64,000 bases of DNA from Jaapia argillacea MUCL 33604. Lineage: Eukaryota; Basidiomycota; Agaricomycetes; Jaapiales; Jaapiaceae. The DNA is taken from contig KL197729.1 of the NCBI GenBank assembly GCA_000697665.1, positions 452,121 through 516,120 of the forward strand, read 5' to 3'. Shown here one piece after another: positions 1-64,000 of this stretch; the stretch's first letter is position 1, and each line of letters opens with the position of its first letter. Made by a program: the position numbers and the translations under genes. The notes below the pieces were generated by a model that was not told where the DNA came from, ran no database searches, and saw only the letters and a program-made list of their open reading frames with translations.

Positions 1-755
1 TTTACCGCAGCACATCCTCATCATCGCTTGGTAGTTCATTCCATGGCAGTCCATTACCCGATAGCCCACACACCAATCCCGGTAGTCCATCCGTCCCTGG
101 CAGTCCATACCTCCCTGGTAGTCCGTATCATGGCGGCGACTACGGCTTCCCACCTCCGTCTCCATCGCCTTCGCTCAACTCTCGTTATTCGCCGTCGCCA
201 ATGCTTCCGTTTTGTGGGGACGAATTTCCAATCAGTGACCATGTCGAAGGCTCGAGTCAAGGACCAAGCTATTCGTCCGGTCTGGGAAGGACACATCCCG
301 ACGACAGTCTGTGCAGCCAGGATGAGAGCGCTGTTCCCCTTCATGGGCTTCCACTTCCGCCGTGCGCCAGATCCCAGGCTTTAATCGATGCGGCTGAGAG
401 GAGGCGCAAGAAGGAACACATATGTTCCTGCGATTTCTGTGGGCAGGGGTTCACTAGGAAGGAAGGTCTCTACAGTAAGCATCATATATCATCCTTTACA
501 TTCGTTCAGATTCAATCTTGGATCTATCTTGCTTGGTGAGCAACTTTCTTACCTCCTTTCCTACTAGACCACTTGAATACAGAGAAGAAGCATCCCTGCA
601 AGAAATGCGGGAAACTCTTTGGTAGGCAGAGCGACTGCAGTCGTCACATGAAAAACAACAGTTGGTGAGTGATGACTAGACAGACATTTGCCGGAGATTG
701 TGTTACTCACGCAAGTTGTGGATGCTTCAGTGGCAAGATATTCACACCGCCTTAA
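1..755 (+). CDS. ZF-A copy 1, two-finger zinc-finger protein (3' part only)
   Basis: The 3' end of a zinc-finger gene whose 5' part lies before the window; the reading frame starts at base 3. The visible N-terminal part is Ser/Pro/Gly-rich with a repeated GSPY/GSP motif (about residues 15-50), then SSxGxGxT and a basic ERRRKKEH stretch. Finger 1 (CDFCGQGFTRKEGLY) is split by an intron at 475-567, and the next exon gives NHLNTEKKHPC and finger 2 (CKKCGKLFGRQSDCSRHM). Read straight on, the protein stops at 668. A conserved GTGAGT donor at 665 and a TTCAG acceptor at 730 suggest one more intron and a stop at 755, ending in Cys-Gly-Lys-Ile-Phe. Presumably a nuclear DNA-binding regulator; target unknown. 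Close paralogues lie at 6,904 and 15,081. Confidence 0.8.
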
Positions 756-2732
756 TGAGTCATCCAGTTCACTCTGCCCTTCCACCGCATTCGTTGTTCT
801 CTGACGCATTCTTCATCACAATACCATTTGAATGTGCTAGAATGTCCTTCGAGGATTCAAGATCGTGTTGTATGCTGATTCCTCGATAAACCTTTGAAAT
901 CTGTAGAACGCTTTCTTGTTTTCCTGCTCTCTTGAATCCTTTGTTGCATATCGATGTATTCCGCCTATGCGCGACGTGTTTCCATTTGTTGTCGAAGGTT
1001 TTATTGATACCCACCGCCCTAGATTATACCATCCCTTCTCGCCCTCTCATTTCCCTTTGCACATCCGAGTTGATACGTTTCACCTAGGTCCAAATATTTT
1101 CACCTGCTGTGCGCGTGGAATCTGAGATCTTGGCATGCCCACCGCACTGTATTGCACAACGGTTTCGCTCTGCAATACACTGCATATTACTAGAAGGACG
1201 TATACTGTACGTGTGTCGATTTTGGAAGTGTGCCTAGGAGTCCTGTGCCACGCGGCAGCTCTATGTTCTTCATTAGCTTGACCCCCCCATTTCTCGCATC
1301 CCCCTGATCCCAGCACTACTGGCTTGCCATTTAATTCAACTTGTTTACCTTCGTTAACCCCTCGCCGGTAGCGCTAACACTCCATTTGAAGCTGAGGCGA
1401 TGGTCATCGGTCAACAAGCGACCGGGGACAACCTCAACATGCAGTGGCGTATGAGCAGATCCCTCTCTCGCTGGTTAGTGCCTATCTCGCCACTTGGCAA
1501 GATCGGAGGTCTTATGTGTCGATCTATAGAGGACAGAAACCACACGACGACCCACCATGCATGCAAACGCATGCGTTCATCGTATCTTCAACAGCCGAAT
1601 AGTCCTTGAGGGTTTCCTCGCCGACTTGTTCAATGAGCGCTTATTCGACTCCAATGACAGCGACCTCCTTGAACTACCAATCTGATCCTCGGATCCTGAG
1701 ATTTGTCTTGGCATCCGAGTCCTTCTCGCGTGAGATGGAGTGCCATCGGCCAGTGGCAATTGTTCGTTCAACGTATTCCATTCGTTGAAAGGGTTCAAGA
1801 TGGTCGGTAAGTGCTACTTGAGCTGTTGCCGCAGTTGGCTTGTAATCTAACGAACACAACACAGCCATAGAACCCTAGACATGCAGTAAGAAAGGAGAAC
1901 CATCGTGCCGAGATCGTCTAAGCCAAACGGGTGGGGGCTGCGCAAATCATGGCATATAATGAGATCTAATCTTCCTGAAAGCTCCCAAGGTGTTGATTCG
2001 CAAGATCTGTTTCCGTCGACAGATCTAGACGTTGCGATTGGGCTGTGCTCTGTTGTGTAACCCATTCAAATCTGATCGCGCAAAATCGATTGGCGGCGAG
2101 CCCAAGGAAACCAACTGGTGAAGTGATTCGTTTTCTAGGCTGCAAAGTTTTACCTTCCTCCTTGTCACACAATAGATCAGAGTGGTCATAACCGAGAAGG
2201 CAATGGAGCGGAGCTGCGGTAACAACGTGAGGTTACATTTTTTGGAACAGCTATTGGTGCTTTCGGTGGTAACTGGAGGAGCATGTCATCCAAGAACACA
2301 CGCACCTCGTTTTCAAGTTGACAGTCCCAGGACTTGCCCGAGGCGGTCAGCTATGATATGGGTTTGCGTCAGGGAGTCCTGAGTCAGGAGGTTTGCACAA
2401 TTACTGATGAAGGAAACGATATTTCTATGTTCGTCACCCGTGCATTCTCGAATCTCATCACCAATAATTCGACTGAGCACCCCCACTACGTCTTCGCGAT
2501 GACTCTGATCACTGAGATCCGAGGATATCATTACATGAACCACACCAACCTGTGGCCACGAATCCTTTGCCGGCTTGACGCGTCAGCTCCGCGACTCCTT
2601 GCAATTCGTCCGTCGTCAAGCGGCGCAGCACACAACGACGCTTCAAAGTGTCCCATGATGTCTGCCAACATCATCTCCCCAGGCCCCACTGTTGCTTTCG
2701 TTCCTTGATCCAAACTACTCAATGTAGTCCAG
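756..2732. other. Spacer U, copy 1 (no recognised gene)
   Basis: About 2 kb between ZF-A and the MAPEG exon, repeated at 8,732, 16,985 and 24,952. I found no protein I recognise on either strand. Short minus-strand frames (for example 2,313-2,543 and 2,531-2,785) have visible counterparts in the other copies but are not kept open throughout, so they are not called. The spacer holds a strongly conserved promoter-like block at about 1,907-1,970. It may be an untranslated or regulatory region, or a gene too decayed to read. Confidence 0.5.
1907..1970 (+). promoter_or_regulatory. Conserved TATA-containing block in spacer U, copy 1
   Basis: A block running from TGCCGAGATCGTCTAAGCC through a G-rich GGGTGGGGGCTG to an A/T element (TATAAT at 1,955) followed by GAGATCT. 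The same order of elements is kept in all four U copies, near 9,827, 18,087 and 26,180, while surrounding sequence drifts. It reads like a core promoter, but no convincing gene follows directly and the MAPEG start codon is about 750 nt downstream. Confidence 0.4.
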
Positions 2733-2822
2733 ATGTTCACCTCCATACTTGAATCAACCCCTCTGTGTCTGTATTCCATTCCCATCGTATGGCTTACTAC
2801 TTTCTGGCCAGCTGCAACCAGG
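2733..2822 (+). pseudogene. Orphan first exon of a MAPEG-family gene
   Basis: Encodes 30 residues nearly identical to exon 1 of the whole MAPEG gene at 18,885 (starting MFTSILESTP and ending FWPAATR) and ends at the same GTATGT donor at 2,823. The remaining seven MAPEG exons do not follow. About 50 nt into the intron, just after GAACCATGGG, the sequence switches to the DUF6589-like remnant. In unit II even this exon is reduced to about 25 bp (10,537-10,560). Confidence 0.7.
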
Positions 2823-2879
2823 GTATGTTCAGCACTTCTAATGCTACTATCAAGGAGAGATGTTGGCTGGATGAACCAT

Positions 2880-3640
2880 GGGTTTACGAATCAAAAATGC
2901 AACACATTTCAGGTTGTGTACACAATCTTGTTAACACCCCCGACAAGGTCATTCAATCCTTACCACACCTGGAGATTGGGATCTCGAGCGCCGCTATCAA
3001 CACCACAATCAAATCTCGCTCGCATGAAGCAGAGGATGAGATATGCACTCTCGGACACACACTCCTGACCTCGTACGCATATGACAATTTCGATGTGCAA
3101 CTGAAGAGCCAGCTCCCAAGCTTGGAAAAGTGTTCCGAGACACTCGCCCACATGACCTCCGCCATGCTTCTTAGACTTGAGCATGGAGTCACAACGAACG
3201 ATCTCAGGTGTTCGAGACTGCTATGGGAGTGCTCGACGCTGAACGACTCAGCTTGCTGGAGCATGCCATCGCCGAGTTTCGAGAACCTCTGTAACATCCA
3301 TCCAGAGTCTGAGCACCTATCGGGCCTTTCGCGTCGTGAACAGTCCAATTCATGGAAGCTCCGCTATGACATATTCTACCATGGGCCAAAATACTTCCAC
3401 CAGTTTCGCCACACCGGAGGAGGTTGATGCACTATGGCGAATATTCCTCGCACCAAAAGCTGGTAGGGATGATACAACAAGCTTCATGTATTTTGTTACC
3501 GTGCAACGGCCTCACGAATTCGGGAAGATAGCCTCGAAACCGACATATCAGCAGAGGGCGGGCCGCCGATGCAGGAAGTAGTTCAGATCACTGATACTGC
3601 CCTTCGACTAAATTGCTATTCCTGTAAATTCGCTAGTCCC
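2880..3640 (+). pseudogene. DUF6589-like protein remnant, copy 1
   Basis: An open stretch of about 180 codons carries blocks typical of basidiomycete DUF6589 proteins: PDKVIQSLPHL, TLLTSYAYDNFDV, ETLAHMTSAMLL and EHGVTTNDLRCSRLLW. This is only a part of such proteins, which are usually far longer. Compared with the copy at 10,609, about 350 bp are missing near 3,425, with GAT at both edges of the deletion, so the frame ends early and the C-terminal block (RIFLAPKAGRDDTTSFMYF) is detached. Family assignment rests on remembered motif similarity. Confidence 0.5.
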
Positions 3641-4914
3641 TGAAAATTTGTTGCCTTCCCGTCAATTCAATCTGTGCTTCCACTCTCGCTTTGATGATAA
3701 CCCCAAATCTCAATCGCAGGGCTTGTAGTTTGGCGATCATTCAAGTTGCAGCGGACCTTCGCAGGGCACGAGTCGGCATGAGTCGGACATGCTACCGCGT
3801 TTATGCCACGTTCATGCATCCTCGCGCTCTCTCTCGATTTTGGTCCTTTTCGCGCTGCCGTCGACGGTGCTGGTTTGCTTCACAATTTGACCTCTGATTT
3901 GGAACTTGCACTGAGTAATTATTACTGATTTTTTTTGGGGGGGGATGGCAACGAGAGACGGGAAATGGTCCTGGCATTAATCTGCACCAAACCGTCTCAT
4001 ATTTGGTACCATCTTCTCCTCGATCATAATTTTGAAAGTCGCCAAGTTACCACTCTAAAGCTGTGGGCCATTCACTCCAGGTCCATCCCCGTCAAGTTTC
4101 CAAGTATGACGTTATGTTGGGAATGCTACCTCTCTCAACTCGTCCGAGTTACAGTTGGCAGGGATGAGGCGTCAGATTGTTACAAAGGGTACCGTCGATC
4201 CTATGAAATCAAACTCCTCAGCTTCGCTGGCCTGATTGATACTGTGTTTCAGGCTAATGGATCCTCGAGGCCCTTATGTTTTTCTTAATCGTAGCCGCCA
4301 ACATCGCACTTCGGAGGAACCCGAGATGGTCTTGCAACCGCTATGCTATCCAGAGCATATGGTAATCTTCTTCTTGAAGATGGGATCTCTGTGGAGGGTA
4401 CTCGTGCTGACGTATAATGGCTCGTGTCGGATAGCCGAATTGTTGGTGGGACTGCTTTCATAACGCAAAGGGAACTTTCACCGCCGCGAGGCGTGATCAT
4501 CCCGGAATGAATCCCTTCTTTCCCAAATCGACTTTGCGACTCCCTAATCAGCTCTATGTTCTTTTAACACCTCCACCGCAAATACGATGCGCCTGGGCGC
4601 ATTCGCTTGATCCCGTTCGGAAACAGTCTGCAGAACGGTCCCGCGAACCTAATACAGGTCCACGTTGCACGATATGACTTTACGTTTCCTACCCCTCCGG
4701 GAGGCAAAGCTCCGCAGTATGGGATCTATAAGGGCAGTATTGGACAATATATACCAGAGGGAGCTGCACTTTTGTGGTTTGAATCGGTTTTGAAAATTTC
4801 TTGCTTTTTGGTTCCTTGACTCATTTTTAATCCTTTTATTCTTCTCCACCTCCCCCCTAGTCTCGGCATCTTGCTCTGTTTTCTTGTCGTTACTCCCTTT
4901 CGTTCCCGCTAGTC
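3641..4914. other. Region upstream of ZF-B copy 1 (no recognised gene)
   Basis: Conserved with 11,710-13,076. Contains a T8G8 run near 3,930 and, around 4,270-4,500, a patch where successive frames read ALRRNPR, then DGLATAMLSRAYGNLLLEDG, which may be the tail of a decayed gene; it is not open in one frame. The last 200 nt are the likely promoter and 5' leader of ZF-B. Confidence 0.4.
4746..4755 (+). promoter_or_regulatory. TATA-like element of ZF-B copy 1
   Basis: AATATATACC followed by AGAGG, about 160 nt before the ZF-B start codon; the equivalent at 12,921-12,930 reads TATATATACC. Position and conservation fit a core promoter; unproven. Confidence 0.4.
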
Positions 4915-5736
4915 ATGTTTCTCAACCAAAATTCGTTCGCCCACTCTCTTCTGAATTTCCAAACATCTCAGCTGATGGGTCGATTTGACAGGAATTGGAT
5001 GGAGGCCATTTCGACGCCTCCAGAGGACGCCTCCCTCGAATACGTGTCCCTGATTGACTCATTCCATGGCGTCCTAGCCTTGCCGTCCTTGGTCAACCCT
5101 TCGGGTTCAAGTCGATATCCAACCGGCGCACGCGACCCCTCCGCTCCCTCAGATGCCATGCCCAGTCTGACTACGTCCCTACCATACCGCACTCATTTAT
5201 CCAACCCACATACGAATTCCGAGCCTGCACATCTCTCGCCAGCCGACCCATCGCTCCAGACCTACACTTCTCAAATTGCCCCCGAGGGTTTGGGACTGCC
5301 GGCACATCTTGTCGTCGCCAATGGTGGCGATCATGGCATATACAGCCACCCTGTGGCTGTTCGAAACGCGGATCCTCCTTCCAACGTGATCAGCACCCTG
5401 TCAGCCCCGCCCTTCGGTGCATCATCTCCTTCTTCTGTTCGCCGTCTCAATGTGGCTTCAAGTGCGATGGTGGAGGCAAGCAAAGCGAGGCGAAAGGGCC
5501 TAAATAATTTGGGACATTTTCACTGCCCATGTTGTGACCAGGATTTCACAAGGGGGAGTAATCTGAAATGTGTCTTCCTCCTTTTCGCTGTCGTTTTGTC
5601 TATGGTGCTGAGACGGTCGGGTTTCTCAGCCCATTTACGTGCCCATCGCGACGAGCGACCGGTTTGTTGTAACATGTGCGGCTGTGCATTCACAACCCGG
5701 AGCGACCTTAAACGTCACATCAAGAAATTACACTGA
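4915..5736 (+). CDS. ZF-B copy 1, canonical two-finger C2H2 protein
   Basis: Likely a nuclear DNA-binding regulator. Two exons (4,915-5,569 and 5,630-5,736) give 253 residues, the same as its copy at 13,077. The N-terminal ~180 residues are Ser/Pro-rich. The basic stretch KARRKGLN precedes finger 1, CPCCDQDFTRGSNLKSHLRAH, a proper C-x2-C-x12-H-x3-H finger, linked by RDERP to finger 2 (CNMCGCAFTTRSDLKRHIKKLH). The 60-nt intron splits finger 1 just before the first His; it is a multiple of three without a stop, so the unspliced frame is also open. The start is fixed by agreement with copy 2. Unlike ZF-A, all eight zinc ligands are present. Confidence 0.88.
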   Translation: MFLNQNSFAHSLLNFQTSQLMGRFDRNWMEAISTPPEDASLEYVSLIDSFHGVLALPSLVNPSGSSRYPTGARDPSAPSDAMPSLTTSLPYRTHLSNPHTNSEPAHLSPADPSLQTYTSQIAPEGLGLPAHLVVANGGDHGIYSHPVAVRNADPPSNVISTLSAPPFGASSPSSVRRLNVASSAMVEASKARRKGLNNLGHFHCPCCDQDFTRGSNLKCVFLLFAVVLSMVLRRSGFSAHLRAHRDERPVCCNMCGCAFTTRSDLKRHIKKLH

Positions 5737-6903: not shown

Positions 6904-8731
6904 ATGAGTCCTGCACCAGAGTTTGTCCGGATTTCCGGTGATCCTGTCCAATCGGAAGAGGTGGCGGGGGTGGTGGAACAGTAAGTCATTATCCGCCATG
7001 GCTGTGGGTTACTCAATCAGTGATTGCAGTCCGTGGGAGCCGTTTTTGCGTGACCATCCTCTTGTAAACCCCTTCACCTTCGAGCCGATCACTTTTACCT
7101 CCCTTGCCGCCGCGCACTGGTACCCTTCTCAGGCATCCGTAACGACCTCTGCCACGAATAGGGAACCTCCCTCCTCCACCGATTGGCTCGGTCTCGACCC
7201 CGTTGCCCTTGGGGTTCGTGATGTTCTTACATCAGACGTTCTAGGGAGGGCGTGTCCGGCGGTTGACGGCACGGAAGAGTCTGAGACTATCGACGTTGTT
7301 GGAGTTTCCGAAAGCATCCTCGTTGCAGAAGGCGGAGGACAGCCTCGCCAAGCCCTTTACCCCACCACTCCAACCACTATATCTCAATTCCCCGACTCAT
7401 CTTCACACATGGATTCCATGGAAGAGATGGCCAGGGTCTATAGCGGCGCTGCTGCTGCTGCTGCTGGTACGTTACTTGGTGCAAATTTGATCTCTGGATG
7501 CGTGGCTCATTCTTCACGGCGTCCAGGCCCCTATCAATCTCAATACTCTCTATCTAGTCCCTTTCCTGAAGCTGGTATGACATCAGAGCCTCTCCAAGGT
7601 CCTCCCGCATCAGATTCAAGAATGAGCATTAGCAGTAGTTCGTTAACCCCGACAAACGATTCTGCATCTTTTGCTCCGCCACGTCCAATCCCCGCCCACC
7701 GCCGGAGCAAGTCCGACGCTGGCCCCCCGACAAGTCAACCGGAGTCCGGCTCACAGCCGCCTTCGTCACATCATCGTGGTCGCTCTGAACTTTCGGGCTC
7801 TACCCCGGGGTCGATCAACACGAACTTCCTCCAAGTTCCTCAGACCAATCACTATGATCGCGAGTCGATGACCTCCTCACCATCCTCTAATGCTGGGAGG
7901 GGTCATCGTCGAACTGGATCACGGGGCTCGTCTCCCTACCCCCCACATCATGGCTCGTCTCTTCATGGCACTCCGCCGCATGGAGCAGGCAGTCAGATAT
8001 CGCTTGGAGATCAGCCTTCTCTTTACCGGGGCAGATCCTCGTCGTTCAACAGCTCTCTCCATGGTAGTTCATTCCGTGACAGCCCACATCCTAATCCTAG
8101 CAGTCCATACCATGACAGCAACCACGACCACCCGCCTCCATCTCCGTCACCTTCTGCCACCTCTCATTATTCCCCGTCACCAACTTCTCCGATCTCTGGG
8201 CACAGTTTCTCAACGAATCACCTCGGTGAAGGCTCCAGTCAAGGACCAAGTTACTCGACGGGTTTGGTATTAAGCCCTCCCAACAACAGTCAGTATAGTG
8301 AAGATAAGAAACCTGTGCTTCCTCATGAGTTCCCAGTTGGATCTTGCGCTGGATCCGCTGCCGCTGCCGCTGCGTCTGAGAAGAGACGAAAGAAGCCTCA
8401 CAAGTGGTTTTGTGATCTCTGTAAGAAGGGGTTCACTAGGAAGGAAACACTCCAGAGTGAGCATTCTATATCATCTCATCCCTGGGTTTCATTCGGGTTC
8501 AATCTTCGAACCACCCTTGCTTGGCAAACAAATTGCTTACCTCCCTTCCTACTAGACCACTACAACTCACTGACCAAAGAGAAAGAGTATCCCTGCGGGA
8601 AATGCGGGAAAACCTTTGGTAGGAAGAACGACCGCAAACGTCACATGGACTCTTGGTGAGTAGTGAATGGAGGGACCCTCGCTGGAGGTTGTATTACTCA
8701 CACAAGCTACGGTTTCTTCAGCACGAGATAA
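6904..8731 (+). CDS. ZF-A copy 2, two-finger zinc-finger protein with altered ligands
   Basis: Probable nuclear regulator of ~517 residues in five exons (6,904-6,980; 7,030-7,466; 7,527-8,456; 8,556-8,655; 8,722-8,731). The start ATG is chosen because it is shared with copy 3 and opens a short first exon ending before a GTAAGT donor. A poly-Ala tract lies near residue 170; the middle is Ser/Pro/His-rich with SSPYP and SPY motifs; a basic KRRKKPHKW leads into finger 1 (CDLCKKGFTRKETLQ-NH). At the place of finger 1's second His there is Leu (H-YNS-L), although the linker pattern is kept. Finger 2 is CGKCGKTFGRKNDRKRHM. If the last intron (8,656-8,721) is spliced, finger 2 ends H-MDS-C; if not, the stop is at 8,659. 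The 60-nt and 99-nt inner introns contain no in-frame stop here. Confidence 0.85.
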
Positions 8732-10608: not shown

Positions 10609-11709
10609 ATGAACCATGGGTTTACGAGTCAAAAATGCAACACATTTCAGGTTGTGTACACAATCTTTCTTCATTCTTGTAACACCCCCGACAAAGACAT
10701 TCAATCTTTGTCACATCTGGGATTGGGATCTCGAGTGTCGCTATCAACACCGCAATCAAATGTCGAGGAGGATGAGATATACACTCTCGGACAGACATTC
10801 CTGACCTCGTACGCCTATAACCATTTCGATGTGCAACTGAAGAGCCAGCTCCCAACCTTGCAGAAGTGTTCCGAGACACTTGCCCACATGACCTCCGCCG
10901 TGCTCCTCAGACTTGAGCATGGAGTCACAACGAACAATCTCAGGTGTTTGAGACTGCTATGGCAGTGCTCAACGCTGAACGACTCAGTTTGCTGGAGCAT
11001 GCCATTGCCGAGTTTCGGGACCTCTGTAACATCCATCTCCGAGTACCCATCGGGCCTTTCGCGTTGTGAATGGTTCAATTCATGGAACTTCCGCTATCAC
11101 CTATTCTACCATGGGCTAAAATACTTCCACCAGTTTCGCCACACCCTCGGGTCACCGAAAGAGGTTGATTCCACCCCGGTTGTCAAATCCCACCACTTTC
11201 CTGCTCAAGCCATGGATATCAACCAGTCCGAAGCATCAGGGAATATCCAAGTCATAGCAAACCTTCTAATGCATGGAGGTGTTGGAGATCCGTACCAGCA
11301 ACATCCGGGAGACGTAGCTGCAGGAGATGAGTGGAATATTGTCAACATGACAGACCATGTTATCTTGTTCCACGGAGATCTTGGGACCTCAGAACGGGTA
11401 CATTCGGTTCTCGAATACCGTTCCATCGAGGACACTGCTCCATGGCATCGTTATCAATCTATTGTATTTGTCATGGGATTGTTCCACTTGAAGACAGCTG
11501 CTGCAGATGCACTGCGGCGAATATTCCTCGCACCAAAAGCTGGTAGGGATGATACAAGAAGCTTGATGCATTTTGTTACCGTGCAACGGCCCCGCGAATG
11601 CAGGAAGATAGCCTGGAAACTGACATATCAGCAGATGCACGAAGTAGTTCAGGTCACTGGTACTGCCCTTCGACTAAATTGCCATTCCTGTAAATTCGCT
11701 AGTCCCTGA
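10609..11709 (+). pseudogene. DUF6589-like protein remnant, copy 2 (open, N-terminally truncated)
   Basis: Open for 366 codons. Motifs resembling basidiomycete DUF6589 proteins appear in order: PDKDIQSLSHLGLGSRVSL (~30-48), TFLTSYAYNHFDVQLK, EHGVTTNNLRCLRLLW, WNIVNMTDHVILFHGDLGT (~240-258), YQSIVFVMGLFHLKTAAADA, RIFLAPKAGRDDTRSLMHF (~306-324) and MHEVVQVTGTALRL near the end. Function of the family is unknown. The family's long N-terminal half is missing, and the frame begins within what is MAPEG intron 1 elsewhere in the window. It is probably a fragment carried along in the duplication; expression as a short protein cannot be excluded. Confidence 0.55.
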
Positions 11710-13076
11710 AAAATTGTTGTCTTCCTGCCAATTCGATCTGTGCTTCCACTCTCGCTTTGATGATAATCCCAAATCTCAATCGCAGGGGGCTTGTAATTGA
11801 ACATAGTTTGGCGATCATTGCAGCGGACACGAGTCGGCACGAGCCGGACATGCTGCCACGTTTATGCCATGTTTATGCATGCCACGTTTACGCCACGAGC
11901 ACAGAACTTTGCTTGAACCTCCGAATCAAACAAACCGCTGTTATACTCCATTCTCCATCATTCCACGGAACTTCTGAAGTGCTCTGAACTTATCTCCACC
12001 AATGTAATTCATCCTCGCTCACTCTCCCTCGATTTCGGTCCTTTTCGCGGTACCGTCGACGGCGCTGGTTTGCTTAACAATCTGACCTCTGATTCGGAAC
12101 TCGCACTGAGTAATGGGGGGGGGGCAACGAGAGAGGGGAAATGGTCTTGGCACCAATCTGCACCAAACCTTCTCATATTTCGTACCACCTTCTCCTCGAT
12201 CCTAAATTTGAAAGTCGTCAATTTACCACTCTGAAGTTGTGTGCCTTCACTCTAGGTCCATCCCCGTCGAGTCTCCAAGTGTGACGTTATCTTGGGAATT
12301 CTACCTCTCTCAACTAGTCCGAGTCACATCTAGCAGGGATGAGACGTAAGATTGTTACAAAGGTGCCGTCGATCCGATGAAATTGAGCTCCCCAGCTTCG
12401 CTGGCCTGGTTGATACTGTGTTTCAGGCTAACGGATCCTTGAGGCCCTCATGTTTTGCTTAATCGTAGCCGCCAACATCGCACTTCGGAGGAACCCGAGA
12501 CGGCCTTGCGACCGCTGTGCTATCCAGAGCATATGGTAATCTTCTTCTTGAAGATGGGATCTCTGTGGAGGCTACTCGTGCTGACGGATAGTTGCTCGTG
12601 TCCGATAGCCGAATTGTTGGTGGGACTGCTTTCATAACGCGAAGGGAACTTTCACCGCCCCGAGGCGTGATCATCCCGGAATGAACCCCTTCTTTCCCAA
12701 ATCGACCTTGCGAATCCCTAATCAGCTCTATGTTTTTTTTAACACCTCCACCCCAAATACTATGCGCCTGGGCGAATTCGATTGATCCCGTTCGGAAACA
12801 GTCTGCAGAACGGTCCCGCGAACCTAATACAGGTCCACGTTGCACGACATGACTTTACGTTTCCTACCTCTCCGCGAGGCAAAGCTCCGCAGTATGGGAT
12901 CTATAAGAGCAGTATTGGACTATATATACCAGAGGGTACTGCACTTGTGTCGTTTCTATGGGTTGTGGAAATTTCTTGCTTTTTGGTTCTTGAATCCTTT
13001 TATTCTTCTCCACCTCCCCTAGTCTTCGCATCTTGACGTGTTTTCTTGTCTTTACTCCCTTTCGTTCCCGCTAGCC
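11710..13076. other. Region upstream of ZF-B copy 2 (no recognised gene)
   Basis: Counterpart of 3,641-4,914, with the same decayed coding-like patch (about 12,440-12,690) and a run of ten G near 12,115 replacing the T/G run of copy 1. TATATATACC at 12,921-12,930, about 150 nt before the ZF-B start, is the probable core promoter. Confidence 0.4.
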
Positions 13077-13905
13077 ATGTTTTTCGACCAAAATCAGTTC
13101 GCCCATTCTCTTCTGAATTTCCAAACATCTCAACTGATTGGTCGATTTGACAGGGATTGGATGGAGACCATTTCGACGCCTCCAGAGGATGCCTCCCTCC
13201 AATACGTGTCTCTGATTGACTCATTCTATGGTGTCCCAGCCTTGCCGTCCACGGTCAACCCTCCGGAATCAAGTGGATACCCAACCGGCGCACGTAACCC
13301 CTCCGCTCCCTCAGAGGCCATATCCAGTCTGACTACGTCCCCGCCATACCGCACTCATTTATCCATCCCACATACGAACTCCGAGCCCGCACACCTTTCG
13401 CCGGCCGATCCATCGCTCCAGACCTACACTTCTCAAATCGCCCCCGAAGGTTTGGGACTGCCGGCACATCTCGTCGTCGCCAATGGTCCTGCTTATGGCA
13501 TATACAGCCGCCCTGTGGCTGTTCGGAACGCGGATCCTCCTTCCAACCTGATCAACAACCCATCAGTCCCGCCCCTCGGTGCCTCATCTCCTTCTTCTGT
13601 TCGCCGAATCAATGTCGGTTCCGGTGCGATGGTGGAGGCAAGCAAGGCGAGGCGAAAGGGCCCAAATAAATCGGGACATTTTCACTGCCCATCTTGTGAC
13701 CAAGATTTCACAAGGGGAAGCAATCTGACAGGTCTGCTTCCTCCGTTCCGCCGTCGTCTTGTCCATAGTGCTGAGAAGGTAATCTTCTGGTTTCTCAGCC
13801 CATTTACGTGCCCATCGCGATGAGCGACCGTTTTGTTGTAACATGTGCGGCTGCGCATTCACAACGCGGAGCGACCTCAAACGTCACATCAAGAAACTAC
13901 ACTGA
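13077..13905 (+). CDS. ZF-B copy 2, canonical two-finger C2H2 protein
   Basis: Two exons (13,077-13,731 and 13,799-13,905) give 253 residues, the same length as copy 1. Fingers are CPSCDQDFTRGSNLTAHLRAH and CNMCGCAFTTRSDLKRHIKKLH with linker RDERP, all ligands present. Here the intron is 67 nt, not a multiple of three, so splicing is required to join the fingers; this confirms the gene model for both copies. An in-frame ATG 39 nt upstream exists but is absent from copy 1, so the shared ATG is preferred. Most differences from copy 1 lie in the Ser/Pro-rich N-terminal part. Confidence 0.88.
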
Positions 13906-15080: not shown

Positions 15081-16984
15081 ATGAGTACTGCGCCTGACCC
15101 TGTCCCGATTTACGATGCTGTCCGGTTGGAGGAGACCGTGAAGGTGGTGCAGTTGGAACAGTGAGTCATCACCTGCTATGGCTATGGTTAGCTAAGCCAG
15201 TGGTTGTAGCCCATGGGATAACGATTTTAACCCCTCCGTCGCCACGAACTGGCACCCGTCTCCAGCATCCGCAACAACCTCTGCCACAAATGTGGAACCT
15301 CACTCCTCCTCCGATTTGAGTAGCCTCCACTCCGTTATTCGTGCCATTTGCGATCTTCCGCCCCGCGTTCCTGAGAGGGCGTATGTGGCGGTTGAGGCCA
15401 TAGAGGAGTCTGTGACTATCGATGTCGTCGGCGTTTCCGGAAGCCTCCTCGTTGCAGAAGGTGGAGGCCAGCTTCGCCAAGCCCTTCACCTCACCATTCC
15501 AACCACTCCATCTCAGTTCGCCGAACCATCTTCACCAGTTTGTTCCATGGATGAGATGGACAGGATATATCGCGGCACTGCTACTGCTGGTACGTCATCG
15601 TTTGAAGAATTGATATCTGGATGCACGGCTTAGCCTTTGCGATGTCCAGACATCCAGCGATCTCCCTCTTCTCTTTCTGTTCCTTTGCGTGAAGGCTCGA
15701 TGGCATCAGAGTCATCGCAAGGCATAGCCGCTTCATATCCAAGAATGAGCAATAATTCGTTACCTTGGACAGCCCATCCAGGCCCCGCTGATCCTTCTGG
15801 CCCTGGTCCGCCTCGTCCAATCCCCGTCCGCCGCCGAAGCAAATCCGATGCGGGTCCCCAGACAAGTCAAAGTCGACGAGAAAACGATGCTTTCTCACAA
15901 CCAGAATCCGACCTGTTGGCGCCTTCGCTGCATCGTCGTGGTCGCTCCGAAGTTTCGAGCATCACTCCTGGCATATTAGATAGGAGCTGCCATCTCCAAG
16001 TTCCCCTTCAGAACCATCACTATTCTCCATTCTCTGATGCTGGGAGGGGTCGGGGTCAAACTAGAGCTTCTAGCACCACCACGAGTGGGGGACCGAGCCG
16101 TGCTACAAGCAGGCAGAGACCTTCACGGGACTTGTCTCCCTACCCACCACATCATGGCACATCTCTTCATGGTAGTCCACCACAGGGCACGGGCAGTCAG
16201 ATATCATTCGGAGATCAATCTCCTCTTTACCGTAGCGCATCTTCATCATCACTCAACAGCTCGTTCCATGGCAGTCTGTTCCCCGATAGCCCGTACGCCA
16301 ATCCTGGTAGTCCATACGCCCCCGGTAGTCCATACACCAATCCTGGTAGTCCGTACCACGGCGGCGACTACGGCTTCCCACCTCCGTCTCCATCACCTTC
16401 GCTCAACTCTCGCTATTCGCCGTCGCCGATGCTTCCGTTTTCCGGGCACGAGTTTCCAACCAATGACCTCGGCGAAGGCTCGAGTCAAGGACCAAGCTAC
16501 TCGTCGGGTCTGGGATCCACCCATTCCAACGACAGTCAGTATAGCCAGGATGAGAGGGCTGTGCCCCCTCATGGGTCTCCACTTCCGCCCTGCGCTGGAT
16601 CTCCGGCTTCGAAGGCTGCGTCTGAGAGGAGGCGAAAGGCAGCTCACAAATATTTTTGTGAATTTTGTGAGAAGGGTTTCACCAGGAAGGAAGGCCTCGA
16701 AAGTGAGCATCATATGATATGTTAAGGATTGTTCAGATTCATTCTTGGATCTGCCCTTGCGTGGCCGACAAATTTCTGACCTCCTTTCCATAGACCACTA
16801 CAACTCGCTGAATGGAGAAAAGCAGTATCCCTGTAAGAAATGCGGCAAACACTTTGGTAGGAGGAGCGACTGCAAACGTCACATGAGACATTGGTGAGTG
16901 ATGACTGGACAGACCTTCGCCGGAGGCTGTGTTACTCAAACAAGTTGTGGATTCTTCAGCGGCACTGCAGTCACCCCGCCTTAA
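15081..16984 (+). CDS. ZF-A copy 3, two-finger zinc-finger protein with altered ligands
   Basis: Five exons (15,081-15,160; 15,210-15,589; 15,650-16,702; 16,794-16,893; 16,960-16,984) sum to an exact reading frame of 545 residues. The second intron contains a TAG in the reading frame, so splicing there is needed; this also supports the intron in copy 2. A Ser/Pro-rich middle carries tandem NPGSPY/PGSPY repeats (about 16,300-16,350) just as in copy 1. SERRRKAAHKY precedes finger 1 (CEFCEKGFTRKEGLE-NHYNSL), with Leu at the last His position, then NGEKQYPC and finger 2 (CKKCGKHFGRRSDCKRHM). With the terminal intron spliced the finger ends H-MRH-C; without it the stop is at 16,897. Confidence 0.86.
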
Positions 16985-20398: not shown

Positions 20399-21687
20399 AT
20401 GAATACCGCCTCTTTCTTCGCTTCCGGCGGCGTGGGTCAAGCTGGGGATGATACTCTTGAGGCTGCGGACATGGAATGGTAAGTTGCGATTTGTCGTGGT
20501 CATTCTGGACTTGGGGTTAAGCGTTTGATTGCAGCGATCTTTCTTCTCAAATCCAATCCTATCGGGGTGATATCTCCGCTATTCAGGGGGCGTCGACATC
20601 AGGCATGGAGGGCCGGCCCAACCTTCCCGGAGCTGGTGTCGCCACCACCCACCTCCCATTTTCCGGGAACGGGGCATCGGGACTCGTCGGTGGCGCTGAC
20701 CAGTCGTTTCTTTACCACAATCTTATCTCTCCCTCCGAATACCTTCCATATCCACCTCAACTCTCGATGGCGGATATGGAGCGTGTCCGACGTAGTTTTG
20801 GATCTCCTGGTGGTATGTCGACTGTGATATCCCTACCATTGAGATCTATAGCTGACTAGCTTCCTTGCATAGCGTATAATCATCTCGAGTCTCATCACTA
20901 CTTCACTGGTGAAGTCGGGGAGAGCCCTGACCCACGTCAAACCTTTCCAACATCGTCTCAAAGGTTTCCCACCTTGCCATACTCTTTGCGTGGCAGTCTG
21001 GCGCACGATGCAGTCAACGAGACGCCCTTCGGCTTTCTTCGTCCTCCCGACGTTGCCCTATCCCCTACGTGGCAGTTTCTCTCCCACTCATATAAGTCCC
21101 AATAGCGTCGCACTTTCGCCCCCGTCATCGTCACAATCGTCCTCGGGGTTTCCAGGTCACATTCCCCTCCCCCACGTGCCTGATTTTTCCAATGATACGT
21201 CTGGTGGAAACTTGAATCAAGGGTTAGCTGGCCCATTAGGTTTGGGGTTGTACGTTCCCGACCACGAGCAACATGGTCAGGGTGATGCTTCCGTCCCTCC
21301 CGCTCCACAGAACGTGGTGCGATGTCCTTCTCGCAAGGGTAGAAAACGCGAGGAGACCTCGAAGGTCAAATTCTTTTGTAAGTTCTGTGATGCAGGGTTT
21401 ACTAGAAAGACGAGTCGGGATGGTGAGCATTTTTCCTGAAATTGGGCTGAGTCGGTTTGTTAACGTTGTGACCCGCAAATAGATCACTACAATTATCGTA
21501 ACAATGTCAAGCCGTATCGCTGTCAGAAGTGTTTGCAAACATTCTTTACGCGCAGCGTTCGCAACCGTCACACGAAAACCTGGTGAATGCTAACCGCCGT
21601 TGTCCATCTGTTATGTTGCTGACCGATGTCCTTCCCCTCCGCAGTCGTCGCAGCGTCCACTCAAGCCATGTTGAAGCCGCTATCTAG
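20399..21687 (+). pseudogene. ZF-C copy A, two-finger zinc-finger gene with a frameshift
   Basis: Same architecture as ZF-A: a short first exon (20,399-20,478), exon 2 (20,535-20,812), a long Ser/Pro-rich exon 3 (20,873-21,422), and fingers split at the same point (intron 21,423-21,482). Finger 1 is CKFCDAGFTRKTSRD-DHYNYR, again without the second His; finger 2 is CQKCLQTFFTRSVRNRHTKT. Splicing the terminal intron 21,583-21,644 gives H-TKT-C and a stop at 21,687; otherwise the stop is 21,586. Exon 3 is open in two frames that do not join: comparison with copy B places a one-base shift near 21,070, after ALSPT. Either the gene is recently dead or there is a sequence error. One GGNLNQGLAG/DASVPP unit is present, expanded in copy B. 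Confidence 0.7.
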
Positions 21688-22931: not shown

Positions 22932-24060
22932 TCACGGTAATCCTTGCCAGCGATAGAGCACCTGACCCTGCGCTACAACAAGATCAGTGTCTGCAAACGA
23001 GCGGAACAAACGGTGACGAACAGAGCCGTTGTCTTTTCAGATGATCTTTCTAGCAACGAGAGCGATGAGGCATTTGTTGACTCGAGCTTGATTGAGGTCA
23101 GGCGCAGCGACGAGGTCCAAGACTGATTGGAAATAAGTCAACAGATATTGAGATAAGGACGCAAACGAGGGCGTACTCTTTACACCTTCACCAGACTTGT
23201 CCATTAGTTGTTCGACAACCATCTCCATGTGTCGACGCAGAGTCTGAAAACCATATCAACCAACGACTCTTATGACGGCAGGGAAAACCATACCGGATCG
23301 TTGACACGGAACTCCAGTGGTAGACTCCGGATGATCTTCTCGATGAACATCTGTTGTCACGAAAGATCGATCAAACACAACCCATGAATCAGGAACCAAG
23401 CGATCACATACACTTCGCTCTTTCTTCTCCTTCGCGCTCAGCTTTGGCTTCCCGACCTTCTTCTTGACCTTGCCGGTAGAATTTGAGCCGATCTTACCAG
23501 ATCGCGCATACACAAGGGTCGTTGCATTCGCTGCAAACGTGGTATCGTTGACAGTTGAATCAGCCGCCGATGTCTTGTCGATTTCGGAGGGCTCCGGTTC
23601 CGGGGGTGGTATCTGCTGTAAAGCGAGCAGAGCCACCTGGTGTTCTTCAGCTACACTTCAAGGTCAGTTGCGGAGTAATACCACAATATTTATTGGCGAA
23701 CCTGCTCTCCGTTTAGCGAGTTCAAGAGATGCTTTCGTGGGTTCCCATGGGCATCAGCGATAAAAGGATCGCCAAAATCGCCAAGAATAACAAACGAGCC
23801 TGCTTCCATTCAACAGTTAAAGAGTTCATCTTCATCATATCGAGGTAACTCGAGAATGCTTCGTTGAAAGTCTCCAGCGACTCGCTTAAGCCTTTGAGAC
23901 CTTCGATGTTGGCCCTCGTCGACGAGTTCTGCCATGGCTAGTTCAACAAATCCCAGGCCATAAGGAGCATCTGGAAAGGCAGTGGAGCGAGATAGAGCCC
24001 TTAATGACCCTTGCGAGACTCGCCGAAGAGGTGTTCGATGTGGTGCTGAAGGAGCCCCAA
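22932..24060 (-). pseudogene. DAM1 (DASH complex) duplicate, decayed
   Basis: Clear DAM1 sequence (PHRTPLRRVSQGSLRALS, DAPYGLGF, AMAELVDE, and downstream KPKLSAKEKKERS, LPLEFRGNDP, DLNQARVNKCLIALVARKI) in the same exon order as the intact copy at 31,600. It has lost the start codon of the intact gene, and 14 bases are missing after AMAELVDE, which shifts the frame and removes the EVEALQANIEGL coiled region. Both defects make this copy non-functional if read as the intact copy is. It lies between ZF-C and the truncated membrane-protein gene. Confidence 0.8.
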
Positions 24061-28789: not shown

Positions 28790-29868
28790 ATGGATACCGA
28801 TATCTTCGCTCGTGGTGATGATTTCGTCGAGGACCAACAGTACGTTGCGATTTGTCGTGGACATGGTGGACTTGCAGCTTAGAGTTTGATTGCAGCAATC
28901 CTTCTTCTCTAATCCCACATCCTGGGGATGACCCCTCTGCTATTCTTGCGCCCGAAACAGCAAGCAAGGAGGGCCGGCCCATCCTTCCCGTCACTGGTGT
29001 CGCCACCACTGCCTCTTCCCACACACCTCCCGTGGACTGGGTATGGGGGCTTGGCAATGATGCTGACGCTGGCGGGTCGCTTCTCCATCCCACCGGAACC
29101 GAAATGTCGATGGAGAATATGGAGGGTGGCCCATGGCGTTTCGATGATTTTAGTCGTATGTCGGCTATGATAGCACTATCATCGAGATTCATAGCTAACT
29201 ACTATCCTTGCGTAGCACATCATTATCCCGACTCTCCTCATCACTTCACTGGTGAAGTCGCGATGAGCCCGGACCCACAACCACACTTTCCAACATCGTA
29301 TTCGAGATTGACCACCCCACTGTATCATCTTCATGGCAGTCCGTCCCAAGATGCAGGCGTAGGGACACTGCTCGAATGTTCTCCTCCTCCAGATAGCGCC
29401 TTATCTCCCCTATGCGGCAATATATTTCCTAGTGCCCTGTTTTCGTTCCCGTCCCCGCCCCTGGCACAACCGCCCACACCGGTTCTCAGTTGCATTCCGC
29501 TCCCTCACGGACCCGATATTTCCGAAGATGCATTTGGTGGAAATTTTGGTCAAGGGGTAGCAGGTCCATCGAGTTTGGCTTTGCCCATCCACCACCGCCA
29601 GCATGGCCAGGGTGGGGCTTCCGTCCCTCCTATTCAACTGACCATTGGTGGAAATTCGGGGCAATGGGTAATCGGCCCGTCGGGCCTGGGATTGTACTTT
29701 CCCTGCCACACCCAACACAGCCAGGGCGCGGCTTCCGTCCCCCCTGTTCAGCCGACCTCTGGTGGAAGTTTGGGTCAAGGGGTAGCAGGTCCATCGGGTT
29801 TGGGTTTGTCCACTTCCCACCACAACCAACATGGCCAGGGCGGGTGTCAGGCCTTATCCCTGTCCTAA
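28790..29868 (+). pseudogene. ZF-C copy B, zinc fingers deleted
   Basis: Exons 28,790-28,839, 28,896-29,155 and 29,216-29,868 keep the frame of the ZF-C N-terminal region (DTDIFARGDDF, PSHTPPVDWVWGLG-like Pro/Ser stretches, HHFTGEVAMSPDP). The Gly-rich unit GGNFGQGVAGPSS...GGASVPP is repeated nearly three times. Then, where copy A has the basic stretch, finger 1 and most of finger 2, sequence is missing; a trace of finger 2 (RPYPCPKCS) survives in another frame. The frame stops at 29,868. The terminal-intron donor (TTGGTGAATC) survives beyond it. The product would have no DNA-binding domain. Confidence 0.7.
29536..29844 (+). repeat. Coding tandem repeat, 111-114 bp, about 2.8 units
   Basis: Units start at 29,536, 29,647 and 29,761, each beginning GGTGGAA and encoding GG-x-x-GQ-x-V-x-GPS ... 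HGQGGASVPP. Copy A of ZF-C has one unit, so the expansion is specific to copy B. Confidence 0.8.
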
Positions 29869-29999
29869 GTGTTCGCGACCAACAGATGAAAAATTGGTGA
29901 ATCGTGACTATCGTTGGTTATCTGCCGTGTCGCTAACCCATGCCTTTCCCGTTAACAGCCGTCACAACGAACCTAATCTCTAGCCGCTACCCGAATCTT

Positions 30000-30345
30000 T
30001 CCTTTGTTGGTGGGATTTTTGGAATATCCCCGCATGTGTCACTGTCGTCCGTCAGCTGCTTTCATTCATTGCCGTCGCTTTACGCCCACTATCTTTCTAC
30101 TTTCCCTTCTTGGCGGGATTTCTTTGAATATCCACGCATATGCACTGTCCTTACGTTGGCCGCTTCCCGTCATCGCTGTTGTTTTACACCCCACTCTCTT
30201 CCAACTTTCCTTTCTTGGCGGGATTTTTTGAATATCCACGCAAATGTATCACTGTCCTTACGTTGACCGCTTCCCTTCATCACTGTCGTTTTACACCCCA
30301 CTCTTCCTATTTTCCTTTGTCGGCGGGATATTTGAATATCCACAC
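30000..30345 (+). repeat. Minisatellite, four units of about 104 bp
   Basis: The core GGCGGGATTTnnTTGAATATCC recurs at about 30,009, 30,112, 30,217 and 30,322 (spacing 103-105 bp), with shared ACGTTGnCCGCTTCC and TTTTACACCCCACTC segments between. Only one diverged unit is present in the copy A equivalent near 21,700. Confidence 0.75.
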
Positions 30346-30662: not shown

Positions 30663-30686
30663 CCTCTCTCTCTCTCACACACACAC
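30663..30686 (+). repeat. CT/CA microsatellite
   Basis: A run of CTCTCTCTC passing into CACACACAC. Confidence 0.7.
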
Positions 30687-48515: not shown

Positions 48516-49766
48516 ATGGACCACGTCTACCCAGTTGCAGAAGCAGGCGATGCTCCCCTCGAGGAGCACGCTTTGCTTGATCGTGGGCAGGTGCAAACGT
48601 ATCCCGGTTCATTGGCCAATATGTCTCCGTATGTCGCTATTCTTTGAACCACCGGTCGAAAATTGACTCCCTTTCAGTCAGATATATGGCACTCAAGTCT
48701 ACTACGCACCGATCACAACCTCTAATGCGTCGGCCCAACCTCAGGTCCCTCACGATATGCACCCCACGTCCATTCCTGGGATCAACATCGACACTTCCCT
48801 TCTGTCTACAGACGCCGGACACTATGGTGGCCCCCCAGGGAATGTGGCACATTTCGAGCGGTCCTCGGGTGGTAAGTCATTATGTGGCACCGCTACCATC
48901 ATCTTCACTTAAATTTTTGGTTCGTTGTAGGTCATGCCCACTACGGCCTTGATCCTTCTGGTCAACACATGCATTTCCGGTCGCCGGTGCGATCGCATCC
49001 TTCGCCCAACTACGATTTATACTCGAATCTCGATGAACAAAACCTTGATCCCAGTCTTTTTTCCGCCCTTGATCCATCACCTCGCAGCGCTCACGCGTAT
49101 GGGTATCCCTCCTTTGCTGTTGCCCACCCAGAGGGGTACACCGCGGATGACTATGGTGGCCACAATCACCACCTACCTTCCGACCAGGACTACACTCTGC
49201 CGACGCTACCACCCGATAATCACCCTATGCCTGATGCCTCCAGGGATGCCTTGTCCACGGACCCGATGTCTCAAGTGGGATTTCTCACCCCAGATTTGCA
49301 TCGAGGCGGAGACTTATATAGTTCCGACGGTGGTAGGGTCGTGAGCCGCGGACGATCTGCCGGCCGGTCTTCTCCTTATCGTCTATCTCATTCTCCCAGC
49401 CCTTCTATACCTGATTCCACGGGTATTCCTACACGGTCACCCTCCACTATTGACGTAGACTCGATGCTGTCCGTTCCTGGGGAAGCTTCCTCCCAGGTTA
49501 TGACACCAGGCGTCCGAAGGGCCTCTATCAATAGGCGCAAGAATCCCGGTAATTTCATATGTGATTGGTGCAGCGAGACCTTTACCAGAAGCAGCAACTT
49601 GCGAGGTTTGTGAGCCATCATTGCTCTCTCTTCTTCACTTATACCGGTGTTCCATCCAGATCATTACCGGGCGCACAATCGAGAGAGACCTTATCCATGC
49701 TCCACGTGTGAGCAGACGTTCACCAGGCGCAGCGACATGCGTCGCCATGCTAGAGCCAAGCACTAG
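48516..49766 (+). CDS. ZF-D copy 1, canonical two-finger C2H2 protein
   Basis: Probable nuclear transcriptional regulator. Four exons (48,516-48,628; 48,678-48,871; 48,931-49,605; 49,660-49,766) give exactly 362 residues. The middle is rich in His, Pro, Asp and Ser, with SRGRSAGRSSPY before a Ser/Pro stretch; the basic INRRKNP leads to finger 1 (CDWCSETFTRSSNLRDHYRAH) and, through NRERPYP, finger 2 (CSTCEQTFTRRSDMRRHARAKH). All zinc ligands are present. The finger 1 intron (49,606-49,659) sits at the same codon and phase as in ZF-A, B and C. The N-terminus differs from the other ZF-D copies, and the start chosen is the first ATG in the open frame. Confidence 0.87.
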
Positions 49767-55558: not shown

Positions 55559-56848
<1,290 letters not shown>

Positions 56849-62800: not shown

Positions 62801-63339
62801 CGCGACGTCTCCCTGAATTCAGATCCAGAACAGCGTCGACACTGCAAAAAGGTTTGACACTGTTGCCTACTGACTCTGAGAAAGCCGACGACGATGACCA
62901 AGAGGGTAGCTTGTGCATAGTGGAGATGTCCAGCAGGCAGCCTGTTTGTCCGGCGATTCACTGGCCTATTTTGGTTATATAACAGCTTTTCAGACCTTTC
63001 CCATAAACCCAGTCGCACATTGCCCATTTGGGCGAGAACATATGACCTCCAATGGCGCTTGTTCGAAGCTTTCCGTTCCCTATCTTCGGCCAACATGAAC
63101 GCAAGCGCCGACCTGCAATCAGTGTCTCTTCAGTGATGCGTCCTGCCAGCACCTATCCAGGCCCAAAACATACATGCTCTCATTTCATATCCTCCTGCCC
63201 CTTGGTGGTATGCCGTCTCCTGACCTGTACGCCACGAGCGTCCTTTGGTCTTCTAGGATTTATAGAGTTCATTGCCGTCGAGGATCAGATTCAACCCCCA
63301 GCTCACCCACCCATCCGCTCTTGGATCTAAGCGTCCTCC
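56849..63339. repeat. Long spacer between ZF-D copies 2 and 3
   Basis: 6.5 kb, second copy of the spacer at 49,767-55,558. The best preserved part is 57,160-59,110; minus-strand frames there (57,357-57,695, 57,776-58,096, 58,205-58,441, 58,799-59,071) together look like fragments of an unrecognised decayed gene. About 60,240-61,100 has no counterpart in the first spacer. A C12 run is at about 60,550. No gene can be called with confidence. Confidence 0.6.
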
Positions 63340-64000
63340 ATGGCACCCACACTGAATGATTCGAATTCATCTTTGCTCGGCAATGGCCTCTCAGTTGATG
63401 ACAGGTGATTGAAAGGCTGTCTTGGTTGACTACTTGCGCAACCAACTAATTGTTATGCCCAGGTCGGATTATCCCGCGGAGCGCGAACGTGCAGCCGCAA
63501 CGACGTTGAATGACCCGCCAGCCTTGCATCTCCCTCCGCCGTTAATCCTTGCGCCGGTCCGGATTGCTATCGATTCGCCATTGTCCTTGGGAGATCAAGA
63601 TATATCCGAAATTTTCTCTGATTTTGGACCACCATACTATCACCATGGCGCCCTTGCCGAGTGGTCAATGAATTGTGAGGACCATTGTCCCATTCAGCAG
63701 CTTTGGTTCTTTCTAACCTTTATCTTAGCGTGTTACTTCGAATTCCCTCGAGACCACTTGGATCAGGGACCGACGCTCCATCCTACTCGGAATCTGCATG
63801 CCAATGATGACTTTTCCGAAATCAGCTCTCCCTCCACTTATCCTTCGTCGTCCTCCGTGTCACCATCGCCCGTTGGGAAAGACTGTGACAACTGGCCGCC
63901 AACCACTGATGACGCGGGCGTCACCCTCTCTCCTTATCCTAACGGCGATCATATGGCAGAGGGGCGTATGTTCAACCTTTCAGTCCCATCGACCGAGAGC
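63340..64000 (+). CDS. ZF-D copy 3, zinc-finger protein (5' part only)
   Basis: Exons 63,340-63,404, 63,463-63,674 and 63,729 onward match copy 2 in sequence, splice sites and phase (N-terminus MAPTLNDSNSSLLGN; YPAERERAAATTLNDPP; then SPYPNGDHMAEG and FNLSVPSTES at the window edge). The fingers lie beyond the window. Apparently intact as far as seen. Confidence 0.82.

What the first reader, a model, noticed from the sequence alone, without database searches (positions are those of the whole stretch)
1..64000. Lineage-specific cluster of ten two-finger zinc-finger genes in four subfamilies
Three ZF-A, two ZF-B, two ZF-C and three ZF-D copies lie in one 64 kb window. They share Ser/Pro/Gly-rich N-termini, a basic patch, and a pair of fingers at the very C-terminus. 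Subfamilies differ strongly outside the fingers. This looks like a fast-evolving, tandemly expanding regulator family of a kind not usual for fungi, and it drives the architecture of the locus.
Basis: partly seen in the sequence, partly recalled or inferred. Interest (0 to 1): 0.72.

Follow-up and report, generated by a model that had tools for sequence, protein, structure and literature searches.

The report
Tandem fungal zinc-finger gene array
A fungal chromosome carries about twenty related two-finger zinc-finger genes copied side by side, much of it as a repeated pair of two kinds, which is a large but otherwise ordinary case of a gene-regulator family growing by local duplication.

Summary
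The window (C21:452121-516120 of an unnamed 43.7 Mb genome) is the middle of a longer array. Genes with two C-terminal C2H2 fingers are real, but 8 finger pairs lie in the window, not 10: 'C2' lacks finger 1, and the fingers of the third 'ZF-D' lie past the edge. 'A3' has an in-frame stop. The array spans about 101 kb (422.4-523.3 kb) with 19 finger-bearing and 2 finger-less copies, all on one strand. 27 of 28 relatives examined share a phase-1 intron 46 nt into finger 1; fingers at four other C2H2 loci are uninterrupted. Fingers form three lineages, not four: B+E, A+F+C, D. In the left half the repeated unit is a pair, one B/E plus one A/F gene, seven times. A/F/C fingers have lost zinc ligands. 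Computable dN/dS estimates are below 1, N-termini evolve faster than fingers, and within a lineage DNA-contact positions are kept better than their neighbours. Segments of a unit differ in apparent age. Best reading: DNA-binding regulators expanding by unequal crossing-over under weak constraint. Smaller clusters are published for other mushrooms.

The parts
1..668 (+). A1, 3' part (start codon outside, at -1132): exon to 474, intron 475-567, last exon 568-668; finger 1 and finger 2 lack the fourth zinc ligand
4861..5736 (+). B1: exon open from 4861 (Met shared with B0 and B2 at 4999) to 5569, 60-nt intron in frame with weak donor GTGTCT, last exon 5630-5736; both fingers complete
6904..8659 (+). 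A2: short 5' exon 6904-6980, 49-nt intron, main exon 7030-8456, intron 8457-8555, last exon 8556-8659; both fingers lack ligand 4
13023..13905 (+). B2: exon open from 13023 (shared Met at 13161) to 13731, intron 67 nt, last exon 13799-13905; both fingers complete
15081..16897 (+). A3: 5' exon 15081-15160, 49-nt intron, main exon from 15210 with an in-frame TAG at 15631-15633, to 16702; last exon 16794-16897; fingers from 16657
20873..21586 (+). C1: A-lineage gene, exon open from 20873 to 21422, intron 60 nt, last exon 21483-21586; each finger has three ligands
28822..30000 (+). C2: finger-less relic; N-terminal 114-nt tandem repeat at 29535-29842, no finger 1, truncated finger-2-like piece in another frame; right end approximate
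48516..49766 (+). D1: probable 5' exons from a Met at 48516 (tentative, read from translations), main exon to 49605, intron 54 nt, last exon 49660-49766; both fingers complete, gene divergent from D2-D4
55680..56848 (+). D2: probable 5' exon from a Met at 55680, main exon to 56680, intron 61 nt, last exon 56742-56848; both fingers complete
63413..64000 (+). D3, 5' part only; fingers lie outside the window at 64400-64628
23412..24055 (-). Copy of DAM1 (DASH kinetochore subunit) next to C1; domain falls in two frames (broken copy)
32080..32741 (-). DAM1, copy with open Dam1 domain, next to C2
2753..3427 (+). ORF co-duplicated with the B-A unit; DNA 86% identical to part of the 10609 ORF's region; no Pfam match of its own
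10609..11709 (+). Relic of a dispersed DUF6589 gene (Pfam match at 11083-11685)

Best explanation
A family of DNA-binding transcription regulators (low-complexity Ser/Pro-rich N-terminus, basic patch, two Krueppel-type fingers at the C-terminus) has expanded on one strand beside DAM1 by unequal crossing-over between repeats. Shown: common descent, tandem block duplication, a two-gene repeat unit in the left half, mosaic units. Inferred: the proteins bind short DNA sites, copies of one lineage with nearly the same contact residues, and differ mainly in what their N-termini recruit, so copies of a lineage would compete for overlapping sites with different effects; the lineages themselves differ at several contact positions. 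Copies are under weak purifying selection, two are finger-less (C2, F0) and one carries a stop (A3): ordinary birth and death.
For: The intron at the identical place (46 nt after the first Cys codon, phase 1) in 27 of 28 relatives examined: 22 with the donor searched freely (20, 2), 5 with the donor tested at +46 only (F3; H2, two on C27, one on C3). Eleven fingers at four other C2H2 loci are uninterrupted. ML tree of 22 finger regions: B+E 95, A+F+C 94, D2-D4 with C10 99, with D1 83. Block duplications with periods of about 5.2-5.9, 8.0-8.2 and 6.6-7.8 kb. dN/dS 0.29-0.83 for N-termini (24 of 25 pairs computable) and 0.15-0.63 for fingers (21 of 25); finger dN lower than N-terminal dN in 22 of 25 pairs. 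Within lineages the eight contact positions agree in 177 of 200 comparisons, the other helix positions in 88 of 150; all five D-lineage genes, divergent D1 included, have identical contacts. Pfam C2H2 matches over cut-off in A2, B1, D1, D2; D2 fingers match many DNA-binding zinc-finger chains in PDB by sequence.
Against: No expression, binding or knockout data. Codon-position bias of N-terminal substitutions reaches p<0.05 in only 5 of 10 pairs tested (not in the three B pairs, D2-D4, E2-E3), in fingers in 0 of 10. The 95% interval of N-terminal dN/dS reaches 1 for B0-B1, B0-B2, E1-E2, D2-D4, so near-neutral decay of some copies is possible. A/F/C fingers lack zinc ligands, and A1 and C1 score below the Pfam cut-offs, so DNA binding by these is uncertain. 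The comparisons are not independent. No other fungus could be searched.
Confidence: 0.7

Rival explanations
1. Mostly dying duplicates: the array grows by neutral recombination beside DAM1, and most copies do nothing.
For: Broken or finger-less copies C2, F0, A3 and a broken DAM1 copy; weak codon-position bias; N-terminal dN/dS 0.52-0.67 for the B pairs and D2-D4.
Against: Finger dN/dS at or below 0.41 in 17 of 21 computable pairs; contact positions kept better than other helix positions; 19 copies in 101 kb keep an open frame through both fingers with usable splice sites.
Confidence: 0.3
2. A paired module: canonical B/E protein and ligand-poor A/F protein are duplicated together because they work together, the A/F protein modifying or antagonising the B/E protein.
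For: Strict alternation E-F, E-F, E-F, E-F, B-A, B-A, B-A over seven units; finger 1 of all 7 finger-bearing A/F/C genes modelled has lost only ligand 4 while keeping the other three.
Against: Co-duplication of neighbours is what block duplication gives without any joint function; C and D genes stand without a partner; F0 is finger-less beside an intact E1.
Confidence: 0.12
3. An arms-race cluster like KRAB zinc-finger clusters, each copy adapting to a new DNA target such as a transposon.
For: Tandem C2H2 cluster with turnover; contact residues do differ between lineages, and among F1-F3 in finger 2.
Against: Only two fingers; within lineages contact positions are the better kept part of the helix (177 of 200 against 88 of 150); fingers slower than N-termini; no computable dN/dS point estimate above 1.
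Confidence: 0.04
4. The ZF genes are cargo of a mobile element of the DUF6589 kind.
For: A DUF6589 relic lies inside a B-A unit, and a related ORF in the neighbouring unit.
Against: DUF6589 matches fall at 12 places in the genome, and only one is in the array; no match in the E-F and D units.
Confidence: 0.03

Closest known systems
C2H2 zinc-finger genes of Basidiomycota (survey of 30 species, PMC12295980; Flammulina survey, PMC11433517)
   Same: C2H2 genes of basidiomycetes with tandem copies and local clusters
   Different: Clusters in the passages seen are small (2 and 5 genes in Flammulina; 10 tandem genes in Schizophyllum); no two-gene repeat unit or finger-splitting intron is mentioned in the passages seen
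exp2 of Coprinopsis cinerea (two zinc fingers, cap expansion; seen only as a reference title) and c2h2 of Agaricus/Schizophyllum (PMC4947489, start of abstract and one passage seen)
   Same: Two-finger or C2H2 regulators of mushroom development
   Different: Orthology not tested: no sequence of either is held here
KRAB and other tandem C2H2 clusters of vertebrates (recalled; start of abstract of PMC4592553 seen)
   Same: Tandem clusters of C2H2 genes with birth and death
   Different: Here two fingers only, contact residues kept within lineages, variable N-terminus, no KRAB match in the six proteins scanned

Membership tests
Pfam zf-C2H2 (PF00096) two-finger regulators | C-x2-C-x12-H-x3-5-H in both fingers, B/E/D lineages | tested here: met
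   B0-B2, D1-D4, E1-E3 fingers complete; exception E4, whose finger 1 has Tyr for the second Cys
Pfam zf-C2H2 (PF00096) two-finger regulators | the same, for the A/F/C lineage | tested here: not met
   finger 1 lacks ligand 4 in 7 of 7 finger-bearing genes (A1-A3, F1-F3, C1); finger 2 lacks it at standard spacing in A1, A2, A3, C1 but is complete in F1-F3. Pfam score below cut-off in A1 and C1, yet above it in A2
One gene family sharing a finger-splitting intron (defined here) | intron 46 nt after the first Cys codon, phase 1 | tested here: met
   27 of 28 relatives examined; not found for C27:345.9k. C4:961.5k and C5:651.6k, weak hits of the protein search, have uninterrupted fingers and were counted as outside the family. 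Hits at C16:194.7k, C16:571.5k, C27:202.9k, C27:332.1k, C8:777.9k, C21:554.8k and C21:573.7k were not examined
KRAB-ZNF-like arms-race cluster | dN/dS above 1 in fingers and contact residues changing faster than the rest of the helix | tested here: not met
Lineage-specific family | absent or single-copy in related species | not testable with these tools
   no other fungal genome held; the genome has no relatives here
Agaricomycete host | taxonomic placement | not tested
   fungus is inferred from DAM1 (DASH), short introns and genome size; class is not tested

The most novel reading that the evidence does not exclude
The array replicates a two-protein regulatory module: a canonical two-finger DNA binder (B/E) and a co-duplicated partner (A/F) whose fingers have been re-made into three-ligand domains that no longer bind DNA in the usual way but act on the partner, so that each duplication adds a complete activator-modifier pair.
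Probability: 0.1. Interest if true: 0.6.

Novelty: new member of a known kind. Interest (0 to 1): 0.33.

Why it matters
The array holds about twenty copies of graded age in one place, with contact residues kept within lineages and freer N-termini, so it could be used to ask whether new regulators diverge through their effector part rather than their DNA-binding part. The paired unit with ligand-poor partners is a specific, testable oddity. Otherwise it is ordinary gene-family birth and death; that such large arrays are rarer in fungi than in animals is recalled, not tested.

Tried and rejected
Profile search of the own genome with an alignment was not accepted, so the genome-wide count is a lower bound from single-protein searches. 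Pfam gave nothing convincing for the N-termini of the six proteins scanned. DUF6589 as vehicle was considered and rejected. A KRAB-like arms race was considered and rejected. Paper searches for DUF6589 and for tandem or expanded C2H2 genes in mushrooms listed no paper whose title or abstract start describes this array; only three papers were opened (PMC12295980, PMC11433517, PMC4947489), in passages or one section, so that says little. A paper search on fingers with three zinc ligands gave no paper that I read. No structure prediction was run: the spliced finger pairs are not contiguous in the DNA, and such a model says little on the loss of one ligand. No scan of viral, metagenome or prokaryote collections was run.

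Results against my reading: A1-A3 and D2-D4 have higher dN in fingers than in N-termini, E1-E3 is a tie. The codon-position test is below 0.05 for 5 of 10 N-terminal and 0 of 10 finger comparisons. In D2-D3 the p of 0.042 comes from few second-position changes and not from a clear third-position excess (60, 39, 63). A2 passes the Pfam cut-off despite its missing ligands. In one search N-termini were aligned from the start of the open frame, so some codons may lie before the true start; omega was not computable for one N-terminal and four finger pairs, all with D1. K1, H2, the C3 member and two of the C27 members are not in the tree. One search stopped with an error after A2; one search repeated the rest.

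Contact residues are now given as kept within lineages, not across them.
Full report
What was given and where it lies.

The genes. Finger motifs, splice sites and open frames were modelled over C21:422122-546120 and a further 10 kb upstream. Inside the window there are 8 complete finger pairs: A1, B1, A2, B2, A3, C1, D1, D2. D3 begins in the window but its fingers are at 64400-64628. C2 keeps an N-terminal part with a 114-nt tandem repeat but no finger 1; only a truncated finger-2-like stretch follows in another frame. A3 carries an in-frame TAG at 15631-15633. A1, A2 and A3 have a short 5' exon (MST/MSPAP...) and a 49-nt intron with similar splice sites.

Common descent. In one search donor and acceptor were searched freely (donor 24-74 nt after the start of the first Cys codon) and 20 of 20 genes gave a donor at +46, phase 1. 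(free donor again) added C27:178.6k and K1 at C21:422.5k. Five more were tested at +46 only and fitted: F3, H2 at C21:545.6k, C27:477.7k, C27:481.5k and C3:1123.9k. C27:345.9k gave no match, so 27 of 28. Eleven fingers at four other C2H2 loci are uninterrupted; two of these loci, C4:961.5k and C5:651.6k, were themselves weak hits. Seven further hits were not examined. A tree of 22 finger regions (JTT+I+R2, 1000 ultrafast bootstraps) gives B+E 95, A+F+C 94, D2+D3+D4+C10 99, with D1 83. So there are three lineages in the array, and 'ZF-C' is an offshoot of the A/F side (A+C alone 62).

Architecture. Order on C21 (kb), all plus strand up to D4: K1 422.5; E1 427.6, F0 (finger-less, 428.8-429.9); E2 433.5, F1 436.1; E3 438.8, F2 441.4; E4 444.2, F3 446.9; B0 449.6, A1 452.5; B1 457.6, A2 460.5; B2 465.8, A3 468.8; C1 473.5 and a DAM1 copy (minus strand); a copy of the A 3' flank, C2 and DAM1 (minus strand); then FAD oxidases and a polo-like kinase; D1 501.7, D2 508.8, D3 516.5, D4 523.1. 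tblastn with the models found nothing of the family in 412.1-422.3 kb. H1 and H2 (543.7 plus, 545.6 minus) form an inverted pair. Within 422.4-523.3 kb that is 19 finger-bearing copies and 2 without fingers. From E1 to A3 the unit is a pair, seven times. The genome has only two DAM1 matches, one with an open domain and one split over two frames, both here, so the neighbour was carried along.

Mosaic units. In the comparison of unit B0-A1 with B1-A2 (200-base steps) the B gene is 86-88% identical, the A gene 63-79%, and the DNA at C21:453.9-454.8 kb, between the A gene and the DUF6589-like ORF, 92-98%; the ORF region itself is 86%. D1 and D2 genes are 37-59% identical but their 3' flanks 85-94% over about 1.8 kb, 73% in the last step. 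Pieces of one unit therefore have different apparent ages, as expected from ectopic recombination or gene conversion; which of the two was not tested.

Selection. Nei-Gojobori estimates for 25 within-subfamily pairs: N-terminal dN/dS 0.29-0.83 (24 computable), fingers 0.15-0.63 (21 computable). Finger dN is lower than N-terminal dN in 22 of 25, tied in 1, higher in 2. No bootstrap interval lies wholly above 1; some reach 1. The codon-position test is below 0.05 for 5 of 10 N-terminal and 0 of 10 finger comparisons. Weak purifying selection is the fair summary.

Fingers. Contact positions (-1, 2, 3, 6 of each helix; the numbering is recalled knowledge of Krueppel-type fingers) were tabulated for the 22 models. 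Finger 1 has R at -1 in 22 of 22. Finger 2 has R at 6 in 21 of 22 (E4 has C). All five D-lineage genes are RSND/RSDR; B genes are RSN(A/S)/TS(D/V)R; E genes R(S/C)N(A/T)/TSV(R/C); A genes RE(G/T)N/R(S/N)DR; F genes RESS with finger 2 SSDR, NRDR or TSDR; C1 RTSD/TSVR. Within lineages the contacts agree in 177 of 200 comparisons and the other helix positions in 88 of 150. Between lineages they differ. In A/F/C finger 1 keeps C, C, H and loses the last ligand in 7 of 7; finger 2 keeps all four in F1-F3 but not in A1-A3 and C1 (A3 has a His at too short a spacing). Whether such three-ligand fingers hold zinc was not tested.

What it does. The best-supported mechanism is an ordinary sequence-specific regulator with a low-complexity, probably disordered N-terminus (disorder inferred from composition). 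Within a lineage the DNA-contacting part is kept and the N-terminal part freer to change, so new copies would meet similar sites with different recruiting parts. This last step is inference. The pair unit may mean joint action or merely joint copying; the data do not separate these, and joint copying needs no further assumption.

Comparison. Tandem C2H2 copies are on record in Basidiomycota: tandem share 23% in Volvariella, 14% in Pleurotus, 10 genes in Schizophyllum (PMC12295980, section 3.5 and passages read); clusters of 2 and 5 genes in Flammulina among 58 (PMC11433517, passages). So the finding is a large case of a known kind.

Noticed in passing
window 23412-24055 and 32080-32741, minus strand: DAM1, normally a single-copy kinetochore gene (recalled), is duplicated with the C units; one copy has its Dam1 domain split over two frames, and these are the only two DAM1 matches found in the genome.
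   Followed up: partly
window 10609-11709 and 2753-3427: Relic of a DUF6589 gene, a family with matches at 12 places in the genome, inside one B-A unit, with a related ORF (86% in DNA) in the neighbouring unit.
   Followed up: partly
window about 1780-2780: Apparently non-coding DNA between A1 and the next ORF is 92-98% identical to the same place in the next unit, more than the zinc-finger genes on either side.
   Followed up: no
window 36462-43060, plus strand: Three neighbouring FAD-binding (berberine-bridge-like, label recalled) oxidase genes; copies 2 and 3 are 69% identical in DNA; Pfam FAD_binding_4 for the two of three tested.
   Followed up: no
window 43855-45535, plus strand: Polo-like kinase gene (protein kinase and POLO box) between the left and right halves of the array.
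   Followed up: no
window 29997-30415: Four copies of a 104-nt tandem repeat just after the C2 relic.
   Followed up: no
window 5570-5629: The finger intron of B1 is 60 nt, in frame and free of stops, with a weak donor (GTGTCT); if unspliced it would put 20 residues into finger 1.
   Followed up: no
L042 (C27:476001-481939): A small tandem pair of the same family lies at the very end of contig C27, with the same intron.
   Followed up: partly
L011, C21:444178: E4 has Tyr in place of the second Cys of finger 1 and Cys in place of Arg at helix position 6 of finger 2, so this copy looks impaired.
   Followed up: no
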